DNA of 64,000 nt, taken from the IMG/VR virus record IMGVR_UViG_3300036806_000149, positions 1 through 64,000 of that record; one strand, given 5' to 3'. Of the stretch, positions 19,936-55,893 are shown piece by piece; within the stretch, counting starts at the first letter, position 1; the number at the start of each line of letters is the position of its first letter. The stretch comes from a virus. The translations under genes and the position numbers were made by a program. Under the pieces are notes generated by a model. It was given only the letters and a program-made list of their open reading frames with translations, was not told the origin of the DNA and ran no database searches.

Positions 19936-20024
19936 AGCGGCGTAGCTCAAGTGGTAGAGCCCTCGGAGGCGTTTCTGATCCTTTCGGCCTGTGAGGAGAT
20001 GCAAGTTCGAGTCTTGCCGCCGCT
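19936..20024 (+). tRNA. tRNA-like element with abnormal anticodon arm
   Basis: AGCGGCG and CGCCGCT form a perfect 7-bp acceptor stem; GCTC/GAGC with loop AAGTGGTA makes a D arm; GCAAG-TTCGAGT-CTTGC is a good T arm. The 40 bases between D and T arms can fold as UCGGA/UCUGA with a 6-base loop plus a TCCT/AGGA arm, giving class II length (89 nt), but no normal 7-base anticodon loop with U33 is present. Identity cannot be assigned; a decayed or specialised tRNA-like RNA is possible. Confidence 0.5.
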
Positions 20025-20249
20025 ATTTTCCTCGCGCGCCTCATACTGAGCGCGTTCCCACATCTCATCCCAGCACACCATCAGCACCTCGCGGATGATG
20101 CAGGTGTTACACCCGTCAAAAAGAGCGAACGCCGGGGATTCGGCCTCTTCCCCGGCGTCGGATGCGTCCAGCGCCTCCAGACAGGCGTTCAGGTGCTGCT
20201 CCGCCTTGGCCTGGACGTGACGCTCGAACTCGACGTCAGTCGCCGGCAC
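19947..20249 (-). CDS. Hypothetical protein, 100 aa, tail antisense to tRNA-like element
   Basis: Starts MPATDVEFERHVQAKAEQH. Helical, acidic, with a Cys pair (DGCNTCIIREVLMVCWDEM). The last ~25 codons are the antisense strand of the tRNA-like element and read like non-selected sequence, so the original gene may have ended earlier. Overlaps the next upstream gene by 14 bases. Confidence 0.5.
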   Translation of the reverse strand: MPATDVEFERHVQAKAEQHLNACLEALDASDAGEEAESPAFALFDGCNTCIIREVLMVCWDEMWERAQYEAREENSGGKTRTCISSQAERIRNASEGSTT

Positions 20250-48263: not shown

Positions 48264-48269
48264 GATGAG

Positions 48270-48275
48270 ATCTTA
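48270..48275 (-). promoter_or_regulatory. -10-like element at the start of the replication operon
   Basis: Minus-strand TAAGAT is followed by CTCATC and the ATG at 48263. Spacing would put the transcript start at the ATG (leaderless). The same TAAGATCTCATC string precedes the gene at 37390, and TAGGATCTCATC the gene at 22440. Confidence 0.5.
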
Positions 48276-49000
48276 CCTCAAGCGGAAGATCGGAAAGCCC
48301 GACCGCCTCGATATCACCGCCAGGGAAGAACGATGAACCGGCCGCAGACGATCGGGCTTTCGCCGCGCGAGCCCCCGCACCGGAGAGAGTGGCGTGAAGG
48401 AGCCGAGAGTCTACAGCTCCCCAGAAAGACGAAACCCCGACTCGATCAGCAGGTCCGAGACGGGGCTTCGCTATGGGGTGACGTCTTCAAGCCCGACAAC
48501 GCACGCGGGGGCGTGATAGGCTGCCGGTCGTTAGCCAAGAAGACGTGAGGATTGTAGCAAATCCTCGTGCAGATTGGAGTTGCTCTGTAGCAACACAACG
48601 CTCAATCTCTGAACGATCAGCAGGCACCGCATCATGGGACGCGCTGGCGTAGAGGCGGTGACGTGACTCGGAAGCGAATGGGACAGGCGGGCAAGCCGAC
48701 AGCCGCCAGGTCGCGGAGAGAGCGTTGGGGCTTGGGAGGGCGAGAGAGAGCTTATATACGCTGTAGCTACAACCCTCTCCAGGGACAGGCGGGATCTGCC
48801 CGGAAGCGAAGCCTATGGCGAGAGGGCTAAAAGATCTCAAACCCATGAAACTCAGGTGATAAGGTGCCTGCCACTCTAATAATCAGGAGCGGCAGACGCC
48901 ATGGCGACACCGCTCCCAGGCCACAGGAGGCGCTACTCCCATGACCTCCAAGGGATTATACCCTTGCATTTTTGTGCATTGCATCACGTAACTACGTGCA
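48276..49000. other. Hairpin-rich noncoding region (possible ncRNA or origin)
   Basis: 725 bases between divergent genes with no convincing gene. Inverted repeats include GGAAAGCCCG/CGGGCTTTC (48292-48361), CCCCGaCTC/GAGaCGGGG (around 48435-48465), GACGTCTTC/GAAGACGT (48481-48548), GAGGATT/AATCCTC (around 48547-48566) and GTTGCT/AGCAAC (48581-48596). GATCAGCAGG and GGGACAGGCGGG each occur twice. TATACGCTGTAGCTACA (48755-48771) is a second-element copy. Near 48975 CACGTAactACGTG forms a palindrome just ahead of the HNH-helicase ATG. Confidence 0.55.
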
Positions 49001-51070
49001 ATGTCTGCTCGCATCTTTGCTCTACGTGAGCATAACTCTCTGTTTCTCCGCTCCGGTGGCCGATGTCAATCATGTGGATCTGAGCTGATTCGTGGTTGGC
49101 ACGCCGACCACGTAATCCCCTGGTCGGCTGGAGGAAGAACGGTACTTTCAAATGGGCAAGCGCTTTGCGCTGTCTGCAATCTTCAGAAGGGTAACTCGAT
49201 GTCTTCGACCAAAACTCGTAATGCACCAGAACTTCGTCCATTTCGCGCACGTGACTTTCAGCGGCGGTTGGATGAGACTGTCCACCAGCGTTGGGATGAA
49301 CCAGACAAGAGGACGATCGCGTGGGTAGAGACCGGCAGCGGTAAAACCAAGGCGTGGATCGCCTTGGCTGATCATCTGATCATAAAGGGACTAATCGACT
49401 ACGTTATGGTTTATACGCCTCGGTTGAACCTATGCGAACAGGCCGATCTCGACAGCCAGGAGTTCAAGCGCGAGCACGGAGCAGCTTTTAGAGTGATTGG
49501 CCACAAGGCCAATAAAATGCCTCTGCGCTCCTCCGAGGAAGACGGCTTTATCTCAACCTTCCAGGCTGCGGTGATGGCGGAGAATACCGCCATTGCCAAA
49601 AGTGAAGAGAACATTCACGTCGTTCAAGCGCGAAAGGATCAGAGCCGCTTCTTGTTGGTCATCGACGAGGCGCAGTTCTGTGGCCTAGACAAAGATGGAG
49701 GTGGCACTAAAGCAGCACAAGTCATGCAGCGTTTGATGGAGCTTGCAGCTCATACGTTGATCATGACAGGCACACCTTACCGCGCTGATGGTCAGCGCGT
49801 GATCGGATGCGAGTACAGCATCAATCACGATAATCCCAAGTTCGAGCGGCTGATCTGGCACGTTCGCGCGACGCTCAAGGAAGGTCTAGCCAACGATTAT
49901 CTCCGGCCACCTGAGTTCTACCTTCACCCCGGTCTTGCCAAGTGGGAGTCATCCGATGGATTGATCAAACGCAACATCGACATCACCCAGGCTGAAGACA
50001 AGCTAAAGCCCATTCTGGCGAGTGAAGACGTGTTTAGCCCCCTTGTTGATGACACCATCGAGAAGTACCGCGAGCGCGTCAAGCTCGATCGACGTTATTG
50101 CGGCCTGATCACGTGCGGGACTCAGTCTCAGGCGCGGGCCGTTCTCCGGTATGCCAAGGCCAACTACCCAGATATCGATTACGTCTGCGTGTTATCGGAC
50201 CCGTCCGAAGATGATGGCGTTCACGCGGGGGCTCAAGCACACAGCATGTTGCGTGCTTTCCGGAAGCGGAAAGACGGTGGCATTCTCATCACAGTCCGTA
50301 TGGTGTTTATCGGGTTTGACCATAAGCCGATTACAGTCATCTGTGTGTTGACGCACTACCGTCATGAAGGACACTTACGTCAGATTCTTGGTCGCGGTCT
50401 GCGTATGTGGATCGCAAAAGAGGGTGAACTACCAGCACCACCTATCGACGAACAATGGTGTTTCATAATCGGTCCAGATGATCCCAGATTCGCAAAGTTC
50501 GCCGAAAAGATTCGCAAGGAACGCGATGACGGACTTCACATCCGTAATACGCGCATTAGCAATGGAGGTAGTGGAAGTGGCACCATAGATGAGGGAGTCG
50601 TCACCGATGCGGACATGGGCGATCCGCGCGCAGCAAGCATCGATACTGACCTCGATGCTGACGACTTGAAGTTGATCGAGGACTTCCGACAAGAGCATAG
50701 TTTGCATACGCCTCCTACAGAGATCCGTAAAATCATCGACAATTTCTCAGACTGGAAGCGGAATCGAGGAGATACGTATCAGTCTTCTCGCGAACACACC
50801 AATCATCGGACTCGCAAAGAGGATCTCGAAGCACAGCGAGCGACTTGTCAAGATTGGGCCAAGAAGATCGCCGGCTTGCGATTGAATCGTCAGCCTGGTC
50901 GGAACTGGTCGGAACTCATGCGTGAAATCATCGGCGAGGCTCACAACGGACCCTTCGGAGATCAGCTCGGGTTTATCAAGAATGGAGATCTCTCCACGAT
51001 GGAGGATCTCAAGACTCGCGAGGATACTTTGAGGAAGATGTATTCCAATGAGCGCAAATCACAACATTAG
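49001..51070 (+). CDS. HNH nuclease fused to SF2 helicase, 689 aa
   Basis: Residues ~15-65 form an HNH/McrA-type domain: CQSCGSELIRGWHADHVIPW (Cys22, Cys25, Asp36-His37), SNGQALCAVCNLQKG (Asn51, Cys56, Cys59, Asn60). From ~75 an SF2 helicase: VETGSGKTK (110-117), VIDEAQF (motif II, DEAQ), LIMTGTPYRADG (motif III-like), and GHLRQILGRGLRMW (motif VI). The last ~200 residues are unassigned. Base composition is clearly lower in GC than the flanks, and transcription opposes the surrounding replication genes, indicating an acquired cassette. Architecture suits restriction or exclusion of other DNA; activity not known. Confidence 0.82.
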   Translation: MSARIFALREHNSLFLRSGGRCQSCGSELIRGWHADHVIPWSAGGRTVLSNGQALCAVCNLQKGNSMSSTKTRNAPELRPFRARDFQRRLDETVHQRWDEPDKRTIAWVETGSGKTKAWIALADHLIIKGLIDYVMVYTPRLNLCEQADLDSQEFKREHGAAFRVIGHKANKMPLRSSEEDGFISTFQAAVMAENTAIAKSEENIHVVQARKDQSRFLLVIDEAQFCGLDKDGGGTKAAQVMQRLMELAAHTLIMTGTPYRADGQRVIGCEYSINHDNPKFERLIWHVRATLKEGLANDYLRPPEFYLHPGLAKWESSDGLIKRNIDITQAEDKLKPILASEDVFSPLVDDTIEKYRERVKLDRRYCGLITCGTQSQARAVLRYAKANYPDIDYVCVLSDPSEDDGVHAGAQAHSMLRAFRKRKDGGILITVRMVFIGFDHKPITVICVLTHYRHEGHLRQILGRGLRMWIAKEGELPAPPIDEQWCFIIGPDDPRFAKFAEKIRKERDDGLHIRNTRISNGGSGSGTIDEGVVTDADMGDPRAASIDTDLDADDLKLIEDFRQEHSLHTPPTEIRKIIDNFSDWKRNRGDTYQSSREHTNHRTRKEDLEAQRATCQDWAKKIAGLRLNRQPGRNWSELMREIIGEAHNGPFGDQLGFIKNGDLSTMEDLKTREDTLRKMYSNERKSQH

Positions 51071-51710
51071 TCACCGGACCGTAACAGTACGTCTCTCTGA
51101 CGAAGAACGCCACCTCGAACTGCTACGTGAAGCTGCCACGAGTAGTGGTGTGAATCCGCGTGGTTTCATCCTGGTGCTCTCGCGTGTGATCGAGCGAAGG
51201 ATGTGGGAGACCTTTCCAGGTGGCTCGATCACATTTCATGAGTTCATTGAGCGCGTCGGGCTGACTCCTGATGCGCTCGAATCGATCTTGGAGATACCGG
51301 CGGAGCTTGAGGACCGCTCTGGAGAGCATGAGCGCTTTGAGGAAACTCGCGAAGAAGCCCGGAAACTGCTCGGCATCCAGAGGAAGGTTCGAGAACTGCT
51401 CACTCCGGAGGTCAATCAGCATGGCACGAATCAGCATGCCGAAGGAGGTTCTATTAGAACCTCCTCTCGCGGCACGACGGAGAACTACACCATGCGAGTC
51501 CTCCACCGAGATCACCCTAAGCTCTATCGGCGCGTGCTTGACGGCGAGCTATCAGCTCATGCCGCAGCGATCGAAGCTCGTATTCGTAAACCCACTGCCA
51601 CGGTCCCAGTGGACTCCGCAGAGAAGGCCATCAAAGCTCTCTCTCGCCGCTTCACAATTGAAGAGCTTCGAGAAGCCCTGGATCACTTGTCAACCTCGCG
51701 GCAGAGTTGA
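51048..51710 (+). CDS. Partner of HNH-helicase, 220 aa
   Basis: Overlaps the helicase gene by 23 bases, so the two are coupled. N-terminal TVTVRLSDEERHLELLREAA resembles a ribbon-helix-helix or small regulator helix; the middle holds NQHGTNQHAEGGS, and the C-terminus (GTTENYTMRVLHRDHPKLYR, VLDGELSAHAAAIEARIRK) matches a block often found in actinobacterial plasmid and phage proteins. Same lower GC as the helicase. May be specificity or control subunit; inference. Confidence 0.62.
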   Translation: MSANHNISHRTVTVRLSDEERHLELLREAATSSGVNPRGFILVLSRVIERRMWETFPGGSITFHEFIERVGLTPDALESILEIPAELEDRSGEHERFEETREEARKLLGIQRKVRELLTPEVNQHGTNQHAEGGSIRTSSRGTTENYTMRVLHRDHPKLYRRVLDGELSAHAAAIEARIRKPTATVPVDSAEKAIKALSRRFTIEELREALDHLSTSRQS

Positions 51711-53289: not shown

Positions 53290-53719
53290 CGTCCGTCTCC
53301 TTGAGTCCGGTGGTGGGCATTGAGGTGTAAATGCTCGCTACGCCGCGCTTGCCGTAGAGGCGAATCAGCTCGTGTTGCTTTAGGTAGCGCACCACGGAAT
53401 CGATGTGCGAGTGCGAGCGCCCCGTGGCCGCCTCGATCTCCTTGAGCGTCATCGGCTCGCTCGACTCCGAAAGCGTCGTCATGACCGCCTGAATGGATTC
53501 CGGCGAGGGACTCCAGCCGTCGGAGCTGGCGGGTCGTCCCCGTCGCTTCCTCGATGTCGTTGGCTTCTCCCCACTCAGATTCTGCTTGGCTTGCGTCAGG
53601 CGCTTGACGCGCTCGCGCGAGAGGGCCAAGCGCTCTTCGATCCCGTCGAGGATCTGCTGCTCATCGGTGAGCTGCTGTTCGATGTCGGCCAGAATCTTTT
53701 CAAAGCCCGTGTCACTCAT
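53270..53719 (-). CDS. Coiled-coil plus winged-helix regulator, 149 aa
   Basis: Start at 53719 (MSDTGFEKILADIEQQLTDE). Residues 5-50 are a coiled coil, residues 52-65 a basic AT-hook-like stretch (SRKRRGRPASS), and residues 70-135 a winged helix (MTLKEIEAATGRSHSHIDSV, VRYLKQHELIRLYGKRG). ATGA overlap with the helicase stop. Likely DNA-binding oligomer. Confidence 0.6.
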   Translation of the reverse strand: MSDTGFEKILADIEQQLTDEQQILDGIEERLALSRERVKRLTQAKQNLSGEKPTTSRKRRGRPASSDGWSPSPESIQAVMTTLSESSEPMTLKEIEAATGRSHSHIDSVVRYLKQHELIRLYGKRGVASIYTSMPTTGLKETDDALAVA

Positions 53720-55152
53720 ACCGGTTGTGCCCTCCTTGTCGTGACTCGGTAGCCACGACGCTTGTAGACCTCCAGATGCCGCACCCTCCATTGCGCTTCG
53801 AGCGGTCCCACGTTGTCTGTGTAGTCGAAGATGACCGCCGCCGCAGCCTCGCCGTCGCATTTCTTGTCGGGATGTTTTCTCTCTATCCGGCCGACCTGCT
53901 GCGTGACAAGCCCTGCGTTGCGCTGAGGGAAGGGCAGATGCAGACGGTCGAGCCGAGGAATGTCCATCGCTTCGTCAGCCAGCGTCGAGAGCAACACACA
54001 AGGCGATGTCTCCGCCAGCGCCTTGGCCTCTTGGCGTGCCTCGTTGCTGTCCTGGCCGGTGATCGTGACGATCGGGTCGGCGAAGCCCTCATCGATCAGC
54101 ATGCTGTGCAGGATGTCCAGATGCTCCAGGCGCTTTGAGACCACGAGTTGGTGATGGCCCGCGTTCTCGACGATCGTATTGACGATGATCTGGTTGCGCT
54201 CTTGGTTGGAAACCAGAGCCTGGATTAGCTGGGGCCAGTTGGAGGGCGTGTAGCGCCCACGCCGACCCTGGAAGCCAAACCGGAACTTGGTGGGAATCCG
54301 GACGACCTCGGGCTTCTGGAGCGTGTCCACCGCGTCGGACTTGGTCTCGTGGATGATCGGGCCGAGCACATTGACGGCCAGGGCAAACGCGCCTGTCTTC
54401 TCGGGCGTGGCAGAAACACCCAGCCGGTAGCGAGCCGAGAAACGATCGAGTAGCCGGCGGTAGGTATCCGCCTGGGCGTGGTGGCACTCGTCCAGGCAGA
54501 CCAAAGAAAACTGATCGAAGAAGCCTTCGGCTTCCAGCGCATCAAACCTGCTACTCAATGTCTGTGCTGTAGCTACAGTCAAGTATGAAGAGACGTCGAA
54601 GATTTGATCACCAATCTGACTGACTGGGTAATGCTCACCGAGATGCTCGATTGCCCGTGCGCGCCACTGCCACGCCACATCGAGTGCGGATATGATGATC
54701 AGACTCTTACAGGCTAGCTGCTGTATGAGTGCTAGAACGGCAACGGTCTTTCCACTCCCGGCTGGTGCTTTGTAGATACCCTGTTGCAATTCTTTCATGA
54801 CCTGCACGGCGGAGATCTGCCACGGGTGGAGGTTGGGCTTCTGGCCGATCCGGAACTTGGCTTCGAACTGCCGGCGATCGGTCCAGGTGATCTCCAGCCC
54901 CATGTCGCGCATGCCCTGCGCGTAGTCCGCAGCGAAGCCCCGGGGCATGACCAGATACTCGCCCTCGATCTCGTATAGCTCGATCGTATCTGGCATCCGC
55001 TCCGCGCCCCAGACGAACTGGTCGAGAGCTTTCTGCTTGGCCAGGTTGGGGATCGAGAGCGCTTCCATGATGTGCTCGGCCACGCCCGGGGGCAGTTCGC
55101 TAAGCCTCACGCGCAAGCGGTAATCGATGATGGTTGTGATTTGTTCCGGCAT
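53716..55152 (-). CDS. SF2 DNA helicase, 478 aa
   Basis: Walker A APAGSGKT (129-136), motif II DECHH (221-225), motif III-type GVSATPEKTG, and motif VI QQVGRIERK. Similar to phage UvsW and ComFA/SSL2-like DEAD/DEAH enzymes. Precedes regulatory genes. A role in fork remodelling or recombination with RecA-like and RusA is inferred. Contains CTGTAGCTACAG (54567-54578). Confidence 0.82.
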   Translation of the reverse strand: MPEQITTIIDYRLRVRLSELPPGVAEHIMEALSIPNLAKQKALDQFVWGAERMPDTIELYEIEGEYLVMPRGFAADYAQGMRDMGLEITWTDRRQFEAKFRIGQKPNLHPWQISAVQVMKELQQGIYKAPAGSGKTVAVLALIQQLACKSLIIISALDVAWQWRARAIEHLGEHYPVSQIGDQIFDVSSYLTVATAQTLSSRFDALEAEGFFDQFSLVCLDECHHAQADTYRRLLDRFSARYRLGVSATPEKTGAFALAVNVLGPIIHETKSDAVDTLQKPEVVRIPTKFRFGFQGRRGRYTPSNWPQLIQALVSNQERNQIIVNTIVENAGHHQLVVSKRLEHLDILHSMLIDEGFADPIVTITGQDSNEARQEAKALAETSPCVLLSTLADEAMDIPRLDRLHLPFPQRNAGLVTQQVGRIERKHPDKKCDGEAAAAVIFDYTDNVGPLEAQWRVRHLEVYKRRGYRVTTRRAQPV

Positions 55153-55185: not shown

Positions 55186-55893
55186 CTATAAGAGCCTTGC
55201 ATCTTGGCATTGACTCAGAAGTTCTTCCTTGTATCGAGACCAGGAGCCAAATCGTCTCGTTACGGTCGATGGTGCAGGAATTAGCTTATTGCCATAACTT
55301 TCGTGAAGAAATTCTCGCCGAGTGGGTAAGTGACTATTTATGCTGACAAAGTTCTTACCAGCGGCCAAACAACTTCCTTGATCCCAATAAACCAATCTCG
55401 TTTGAAAGCCTCCACGTCCGCTGCATCTGTACCGACACTTGTAACACATCCCATATCCAGCAGAAGTTCTGTATGAACGTTCAGTACATACAGTACATTT
55501 CCTAAATCCAGATCCTCCTGGTTCCCACTCCTCTTTTTGGCGAAGATGATGATAATGAGAATGACATAGCCCTCGACTTTTTGTTTTCCTTCCACAACCA
55601 TCAGCTACACAAGTTTTGGGCATTTGACCTAAAGGAAATGTTAGTGATGATTTCCGCAGATGATATGTATTCGGATCTCCGTTGACGAGCCAGCGACGAT
55701 AGTGTTTATCACACCATCCACGTGCAGACGCAGGTTGCGAGCAATTTTCAACCGAACAAATAGATCCGTTGTGATGCGGATGCAAGACTGTATTTGGATC
55801 ACCATACGTGCGCCATCTCCAATAGTGGTTCGCGCACCAACCACGAGCATTCACTGGCTTCAGACATCTCTCGATAGAGCACTTCTTTTCCAT
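55186..55893 (-). CDS. Multi-zinc-finger DNA-binding protein, low GC, 235 aa
   Basis: Three tandem fingers of the pattern C-x4-C...G-x-C-x2-H-Y/H: CSIERCLKPVNARGWCANHY, CSVENCSQPASARGWCDKHY, CVADGCGRKTKSRGLCHSHY, then CTVCTERS...CYKCRYRC. The C-terminus (LPTRREFLHESYGNKLIPAP, TVTRRFGSWSRYKEELL) is a homing-endonuclease-type DNA-binding repeat. Such modules usually accompany HNH enzymes, but no HNH core is seen. Markedly AT-richer than its surroundings; recent transfer likely. Strong AGAAAGGATCAC start cassette. Confidence 0.7.
   Translation of the reverse strand: MEKKCSIERCLKPVNARGWCANHYWRWRTYGDPNTVLHPHHNGSICSVENCSQPASARGWCDKHYRRWLVNGDPNTYHLRKSSLTFPLGQMPKTCVADGCGRKTKSRGLCHSHYHHLRQKEEWEPGGSGFRKCTVCTERSYRTSAGYGMCYKCRYRCSGRGGFQTRLVYWDQGSCLAAGKNFVSINSHLPTRREFLHESYGNKLIPAPSTVTRRFGSWSRYKEELLSQCQDARLL

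What the first reader, a model, noticed from the sequence alone, without database searches (positions are those of the whole stretch)
48276..51710. Acquired HNH-SF2 helicase plus partner gene beside a structured noncoding region: candidate exclusion or defence system
A 689-aa protein joins an intact HNH nuclease (His, Asn and zinc Cys present) to an SF2 helicase with intact ATPase motifs, and overlaps a 220-aa partner gene. The pair runs against the replication genes, has lower GC and is preceded by 725 bases of hairpins without a gene. Nuclease-helicase pairs with small partners are a recurring theme in anti-phage systems (restriction-like enzymes, Zorya, Gabija-type pairs), but I do not recognise this exact pairing. 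The structured DNA could be an origin, an ncRNA or the cassette's own target/guide.
Basis: partly seen in the sequence, partly recalled or inferred. Interest (0 to 1): 0.78.

Follow-up and report, generated by a model that had tools for sequence, protein, structure and literature searches.

The report
Mobile HNH-helicase and partner gene pair
This phage carries a compact two-gene unit, a DNA-cutting motor enzyme plus a small DNA-binding-like partner, that recurs as a near-inseparable pair in dozens of unrelated actinobacterial phages and plasmids and has no entry in the family and defence databases searched; it probably processes replicating or recombining DNA, although a role in blocking rival elements is not excluded.

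Summary
A 689-aa HNH-SF2 helicase (49001-51070, +) overlaps a 220-aa partner gene by 23 nt, in a low-GC stretch of an 84.8-kb tailed-phage record.

The pair is a real, undescribed, conserved unit. Among 105 distinct HNH-SF2 loci, 83 carry a homologous partner directly downstream on the same strand; 74 of the 81 measured junctions overlap. Flanking genes differ from locus to locus. HNH, zinc and ATPase residues are (nearly) invariant across 43 diverse sequences; both genes are under purifying selection; helicase and partner distances correlate (r = 0.85). In Proteobacteria the same HNH is often a separate gene overlapping the helicase, with HTH genes upstream, so the fusion is not coincidental. 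No Pfam, PHROG, NCBIfam or PADLOC family covers the partner.

The motor is closest to RadD and HsdR, and shares ancestry with an HNH-less helicase found in 292 of 296 Streptomyces genomes.

Function is unproven. Some phages have the pair in replication operons, including a closest relative. I favour an element-borne replication/recombination DNA-processing module (0.45) over a restriction-like exclusion system (0.33). The 737-nt upstream region is more structured than background on the minus strand, but shows no sign of being a guide.

The parts
49001..51070 (+). HNH-SF2 helicase, 689 aa
   Evidence: AlphaFold2 pLDDT 83.6, pTM 0.70; best PDB folds RadD 7r7j/8h5y E 1e-13, HsdR E 1e-12
49064..49195 (+). 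HNH nuclease domain (residues 22-65): Zn Cys 22, 25, 56, 59; D36-H37; N51; N60
   Evidence: Pfam HNH E 1.9e-12; residues invariant or 42/43; separate small gene in many proteobacterial relatives
49247..50500 (+). SF2 motor (residues about 83-500), Walker A GSGKT 112-116, DEAQ 222-225, motif VI QILGRGLR 461-468
   Evidence: Pfam ResIII E 8.7e-11; PHROG phrog_16 DNA helicase E 2e-20; invariant residues
50657..51067 (+). helical C-terminal region of the helicase (residues 553-689), shared with the HNH-less core Streptomyces helicase
   Evidence: AlphaFold2; core homologues align over model positions 71-635
51048..51710 (+). partner gene, 220 aa, all-helical
   Evidence: AlphaFold2 pLDDT 84.8; homologue directly downstream in 83 of 105 distinct loci; no Pfam, PHROG, NCBIfam or PADLOC family
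51048..51407 (+). partner N-terminal domain (residues about 1-120), probable helicase-coupled module
   Evidence: distance matrix correlates with helicase r = 0.847, versus 0.631 for the C-terminal domain; shared by short and long partner types
51471..51704 (+). partner C-terminal HTH-like domain (residues about 142-219), replaced by a longer domain in many plasmid homologues
   Evidence: alignments; weak Foldseek resemblance to ParB/Spo0J 1vz0, E 4.3, not significant
48985..48998 (.). 14-bp perfect palindrome CACGTA-AC-TACGTG ending 2 nt before the helicase ATG; possible operator of this phage only
   Evidence: palindromes are not enriched upstream of other cassettes
48949..48966 (+). terminator-like hairpin CAAGGGATTATACCCTTG with a T-rich tail, perhaps isolating the cassette from upstream plus-strand transcription (inferred)
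48264..49000 (-). gene-free structured divergent intergenic region; probably leader/control region of the minus-strand MerR-DnaB operon, not part of the conserved cassette

Best explanation
A mobile two-protein DNA-processing module. Shown by sequence: a RadD/HsdR-like SF2 ATPase with an N-terminal HNH nuclease whose catalytic residues are intact, encoded in overlap with and co-inherited with an all-helical partner ending in an HTH-like domain, found as a unit in unrelated actinophages, Streptomyces plasmids and chromosomes. Inferred mechanism: the partner binds the motor through its N-terminal domain and helps place it on DNA through its C-terminal domain; the motor translocates on or remodels branched DNA (forks, D-loops, recombination intermediates) and the HNH domain incises it. 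I think the most likely benefit is to the element's own replication or recombination, as an accessory to a complete phage replisome.
For: Catalytic residues of both activities (nearly) invariant in 43 diverse sequences. Partner adjacent in 83/105 distinct loci and 5/7 HNH-fused Streptomyces loci. dN/dS 0.06-0.14 for the helicase and 0.11-0.24 for the partner. Closest fold RadD, E 1e-13; RadD is a recombination and replication-intermediate accessory factor (PMC8887467, PMC7470958; abstracts). Replication genes lie within about 6 kb at 14 of 58 viral loci and at the window; in L155 (a closest relative), L134, L080, L087 and L017 an initiator-like or DnaB gene is adjacent or overlapping. The motor is related to an HNH-less helicase in 292/296 Streptomyces genomes, as expected of a DNA-maintenance enzyme. 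Divergent HNH-SF2 or SF2 proteins sit beside the same partner family in other phage-like loci.
Against: Only about a quarter of viral loci have a recognised replication gene nearby, and no control frequency was available. The window phage already has DnaB, primase, polymerase and a second SF2 helicase (53716-55152). The cassette is patchy (HNH-fused form in 7 of 296 Streptomyces), has lower GC and variable positions, and in the window is transcribed away from the replication operon. DNA binding by the partner is inferred only; its best PDB match is not significant.
Confidence: 0.45

Rival explanations
1. A restriction-like interference or superinfection-exclusion system: the partner recognises a site or structure on incoming phage or plasmid DNA, the SF2 motor translocates and the HNH domain cuts, as in Type I/III or Zorya/Druantia-like helicase-nucleases.
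For: Two-gene mobile cassette of lower GC in unrelated contexts, patchy in hosts. HsdR-like fold. Partner evolves faster than the helicase and its C-terminal module differs between types. HNH-bearing proteobacterial relatives have neighbours matching LmuB, retron RT and RtcR-CARF models; HNH-less cousins sit beside CBASS and PLD anti-phage genes.
Against: No methylase or recognised immunity gene in the unit. No clear defence enrichment around actinobacterial cassettes (no single defence family beyond 2 of 124 neighbours at E<=1e-10; aggregate table only). HTH region strongly conserved between close partners, unlike a variable specificity subunit. Replication-operon location in some phages. PADLOC matches cover helicase or HNH similarity only.
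Confidence: 0.33
2. Host takeover or competition nuclease: degrades host or competitor chromosomes to feed the phage, the partner protecting phage DNA.
For: HNH nuclease with motor in a phage; coupled gene that could act as specificity or immunity factor.
Against: Also carried on Streptomyces plasmids and chromosomes, where host killing would be self-defeating.
Confidence: 0.1
3. The HNH is a homing or self-mobility nuclease that spreads the cassette itself.
For: HNH domain and mobile behaviour across contexts.
Against: HNH fixed to the helicase, or split but overlapping, with catalytic residues of both conserved; no shared insertion site noticed; flanks differ.
Confidence: 0.06
4. Ordinary phage recombination helicase with a coincidental upstream HNH, and an unrelated downstream gene.
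For: Helicase similarity to PHROG phrog_16.
Against: HNH conserved at the N-terminus across actinobacterial and proteobacterial relatives; partner co-inherited in 83/105 loci.
Confidence: 0.02

Closest known systems
RadD (YejH) DNA repair helicase
   Same: Closest solved fold (7r7j, 8h5y; E 1e-13) and NCBIfam similarity (NF053632 E 7.6e-7): SF2 motor core
   Different: 17-18% identity, 27.8 bits against a cut-off of 720; the match covers only the motor; here an N-terminal HNH, a different C-terminus and a coupled partner
Type I restriction motor HsdR
   Same: SF2 translocase with attached nuclease, similar fold (E 1e-12)
   Different: HsdR nuclease is PD-(D/E)xK (established knowledge); here HNH; no HsdM or HsdS beside it
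PbeA (phosphorothioate-linked defence) helicase
   Same: Best PADLOC match of the helicase region (E 5e-7 window; 1.6e-23 for L093)
   Different: Only the helicase stretch matches; no modification genes noted in the annotated neighbourhoods
ZRANB3 (eukaryotic SNF2 annealing helicase with HNH)
   Same: ATP motor joined to an HNH nuclease, acting at replication forks (PMC12841045, abstract; HNH detail from general knowledge)
   Different: Not homologous as a whole; HNH match weak (5mkw E 0.22)
Zorya and Druantia helicase-nuclease systems
   Same: Helicase-nuclease effectors with partner proteins; ZorD among structural matches (8qy7 E 1.9e-10)
   Different: No ZorA/ZorB or Dru match in the pair; different partner and domain order
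HNH-less core actinobacterial helicase
   Same: Same motor and C-terminal region, present in 292/296 Streptomyces genomes; 42-44% identity between a group II cassette (L093) and mycobacterial or Tsukamurella copies
   Different: Lacks HNH; no partner next to any of 23 Streptomyces copies checked

Membership tests
RadD equivalog (NCBIfam NF053632) | score above curated cut-off (720 bits) | tested here: not met
   27.8 bits
Type I restriction enzyme | HsdM and HsdS beside HsdR | tested here: not met
   window neighbours and 105 loci: the only recurrent direct neighbour of the actinobacterial/phage form is the partner
Type I restriction enzyme | SF2 translocase fused to nuclease | tested here: inconclusive
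   SF2 yes, HsdR-like fold; nuclease is HNH, not PD-(D/E)xK
Known anti-phage system (PADLOC 2.0) | whole-protein match to a system's models and presence of its other genes | tested here: not met
   only partial helicase or HNH similarity for the large protein, none for the partner
Anti-phage defence (function) | reduces plating of phages | not testable with these tools
   needs plaque assay
Gabija / Zorya / Druantia | signature partners (GajA, ZorAB, Dru proteins) | tested here: not met
   partner has no match in PADLOC and none significant in Pfam, PHROGs or NCBIfam
New HNH-SF2 + partner pair (this report) | HNH-SF2 protein followed within -60..+40 nt, same strand, by a partner homologue | tested here: met
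   window overlap 23 nt; 83/105 loci
New HNH-SF2 + partner pair (this report) | conserved HNH/zinc and SF2 residues | tested here: met
ParB family DNA-binding protein | ParB-type HTH or CTPase domain | tested here: inconclusive
   sequence resemblance of the HTH region by eye only; 1vz0 Foldseek E 4.3; no Pfam ParB match for the window partner

The most novel reading that the evidence does not exclude
An undescribed, widespread two-gene inter-element interference or replication-control system of actinobacterial phages and plasmids, whose HNH-bearing motor lineage also gave rise, by loss of the HNH and the partner, to a helicase that nearly every Streptomyces now carries.
Probability: 0.25. Interest if true: 0.75.

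Novelty: new variant of a known kind. Interest (0 to 1): 0.55.

Why it matters
It defines a conserved, testable two-gene nuclease-motor unit shared by actinophages, Streptomyces plasmids and chromosomes, with a partner absent from the protein-family and defence databases searched here, and links it to a near-universal Streptomyces helicase whose role I did not find described. Either outcome is useful: a new accessory replication/recombination machine of phages, or a new mobile exclusion system for a host group in which few defences have been tested.

Tried and rejected
Close relatives of the window phage (with or without the cassette) were sought with its DnaB and polymerase: none in IMG/VR, and no DNA match in the phage records, so an empty-site comparison was not possible. 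The 737-nt structured region was tested against Rfam, 18 related phage records (no positive control) and, as part of a longer query, the phage records: no match; not treated as a guide RNA. Palindromic operators upstream of cassettes: no enrichment over other genes. Long N-terminal extensions in L113 and L116: open upstream frames, not taken as fusions. Hypervariable specificity domain in the partner: not supported, the HTH region is strongly conserved between close pairs. The two frames of HNH and helicase in Proteobacteria were read as separate overlapping genes, not as a frameshift, because start and stop codons overlap or abut in many loci. Whether the core Streptomyces helicase nests inside the HNH group or is its sister is unresolved: nested in the FastTree tree (0.957), open in the IQ-TREE tree. 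Literature searches found no description of this pair.
Full report
WHAT IS THERE. The window is part of an 84,777-base virus record with tailed-phage genes: DnaB, primase, a DnaE-like polymerase, portal, tape-measure and head proteins. At 49001-51070 (+) lies a 689-aa ORF and at 51048-51710 (+) a 220-aa ORF, overlapping by 23 nt. The larger matches Pfam HNH (E 1.9e-12, residues 22-65) and ResIII (E 8.7e-11, residues 83-260). The smaller has no significant match in Pfam, PHROGs, NCBIfam, PADLOC or the PDB sequences. The stretch has lower GC than its surroundings and opposes the minus-strand replication genes.

THE PAIR IS A CONSERVED UNIT. Distant homologues of the large protein (36% identity over 84%) sit on Streptomyces plasmids, and in each one inspected a hypothetical gene follows directly. 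A profile scan keyed on HNH motifs, and so blind to the partner, gave 57 genome loci and 80 viral loci. After removing near-duplicates and weak matches, 105 loci remain. A partner homologue lies directly downstream on the same strand in 81 by profile match and in two more by weak match. One of the 81 (L155) was brought in by a partner-keyed scan. Of 81 junctions, 74 overlap and 7 have a gap of up to 9 nt. The 22 without a detected partner are 16 proteobacterial-type loci, two actinobacterial MAG loci (L047, L052), a truncated copy (L019), two Streptomyces loci (L041, L051) and one virus (L122). No other neighbour recurs around the actinobacterial/phage form: the next most frequent gene families there appear in 7 loci or fewer. 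In a sample of 199 Streptomyces genomes all four strong partner matches lie beside an HNH-SF2 gene; in 296 genomes 7 carry the HNH-fused form and 5 of these have the partner.

BOTH PROTEINS LOOK FUNCTIONAL AND CO-INHERITED. Zinc cysteines, the D-H pair, N60 and K63 of the HNH domain, and Walker A, motif II, T258, G438, Q461, R465 and R468 of the motor are invariant in 43 diverse sequences, apart from C59 and N51, kept in 42. dN/dS for close pairs is 0.06-0.14 (helicase) and 0.11-0.24 (partner). Helicase distances correlate with the partner N-terminal domain (Mantel r 0.847) more than with its C-terminal domain (0.631). The C-terminal part exists in two forms: a short HTH-like domain as in the window, or a long domain in SAP1-type plasmids. 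I infer that the N-terminal domain touches the helicase and the C-terminal domain touches DNA; neither contact was tested. Cassette GC is below flank GC in 10 of 11 loci tested, consistent with mobility.

THE HNH IS NOT A COINCIDENCE. In Proteobacteria the same HNH motif is either fused or encoded as a separate gene of about 65-75 aa whose stop overlaps or abuts the helicase start. There the upstream genes include a winged-HTH protein (HTH_39, E 4.8e-6 for L022) in 10 loci and a roughly 120-aa protein in 7. Nuclease, motor and an HTH protein thus recur together in two arrangements. A different HNH-SF2 protein (842 aa, L157) and an SF2 protein (931 aa, L159) also have a partner-like gene directly downstream.

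STRUCTURE AND ANCESTRY. AlphaFold2 models are confident (helicase pLDDT 83.6; partner 84.8). The motor's closest solved folds are RadD (E 1e-13), HsdR (E 1e-12) and, further down, ZorD (E 1.9e-10). The partner has no significant PDB match and resembles only uncharacterised phage proteins in BFVD (best E 1.4e-6). Nearly every Streptomyces genome (292/296) has an HNH-less helicase matching the motor and C-terminal region at E about 1e-120 to 1e-137, with no partner beside 23 copies checked. On the trees this core helicase falls among HNH-bearing sequences when rooted on the window group, but nested versus sister placement is not settled. Loss of HNH and partner in the core lineage is a plausible, unproven reading.

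HOW IT PROBABLY WORKS. The best-supported reading is an accessory DNA-processing machine: an ATP-driven SF2 motor that remodels branched or replicating DNA and an HNH domain that incises it, placed by the partner. Support: RadD-like fold, RadD's reported roles in strand exchange and in resolving replication-cycle intermediates (PMC8887467, PMC7470958; abstracts only), relation to a near-universal core helicase, and position. Replication genes lie within about 6 kb at 14 of 58 viral loci, two of 24 genome/plasmid loci and the window. In L155, one of the two closest relatives in the tree, the partner overlaps a putative initiator gene; L134, L080, L087 and L017 have an initiator-like or DnaB gene adjacent. 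Caveats: no control frequency was available, most loci show no recognised replication gene, and the window phage already has a full replication set with another SF2 helicase at 53716-55152.

THE MAIN RIVAL. A restriction-like exclusion system remains credible (0.33): patchy mobile two-gene units, HsdR-like fold, faster-evolving partner, and relatives near defence genes (LmuB, retron RT, RtcR-CARF; PLD and CBASS neighbours). Against it: no modification gene, conserved rather than variable HTH region, weak defence signal around actinobacterial cassettes (an aggregate table only), and replication-operon locations.

THE UPSTREAM REGION. The 737 nt from 48264 to 49000 are gene-free and, on the minus strand, more structured than 36 random windows (z -4.7 to -6.6 against -0.54 +/- 1.32). 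That strand leads into the MerR-like gene and the replication operon, so a leader or control region is more likely than a guide for the plus-strand cassette. It has no Rfam match and no match in 18 related phage records. A terminator-like hairpin (48949-48966) and a 14-bp palindrome (48985-48998) precede the helicase start in this phage; such palindromes are not a family feature.

NOVELTY. The component domains are known; this pairing and the partner family are not in the databases searched, and the literature searches found no description of them. I file it as a new variant of a known kind (helicase-nuclease with a DNA-binding-like partner), with function open.

Noticed in passing
L022:3419-4921, L055:3027-4226, L058:3347-4855, L065:2555-4084 (minus strand): A sigma-54 activator recurs upstream, on the opposite strand, at four proteobacterial HNH-SF2 operons from alpha-, beta- and gammaproteobacteria; four neighbour proteins match PADLOC RtcR-CARF models (best E 4e-193). 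Possibly the operon is induced by RNA damage or a CARF ligand.
   Followed up: partly
L160:4327-6386 (E. coli IncHI2 plasmid), L163:4402-6389, L010:4318-6305: HNH-less cousins of the helicase in gammaproteobacterial plasmids have a 195-225 aa gene directly upstream, overlapping or abutting, plus a divergent HTH gene; L160 lies beside CBASS and L010 beside PLD anti-phage genes. PADLOC has no model for the small gene. Candidate defence pair.
   Followed up: partly
Streptomyces genomes, e.g. L187-L209: An HNH-less homologue of the phage helicase is present in 292 of 296 Streptomyces genomes sampled.
   Followed up: partly
window 48264-49000, minus strand: Strongly structured gene-free leader ahead of the MerR/DnaB operon; possible regulatory RNA or origin.
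   Followed up: partly
window 55186-55893: Gene with a weak HNH_repeat (homing-endonuclease-associated) match in the lowest-GC stretch of the window (0.488 at 55-56 kb); probable homing or selfish gene.
   Followed up: no
window 19936-20025: Single tRNA-Pro (cgg) gene in the phage.
   Followed up: no
L005, L008, L120: TnpB/IS605-type genes lie within a few kb of several cassettes.
   Followed up: no
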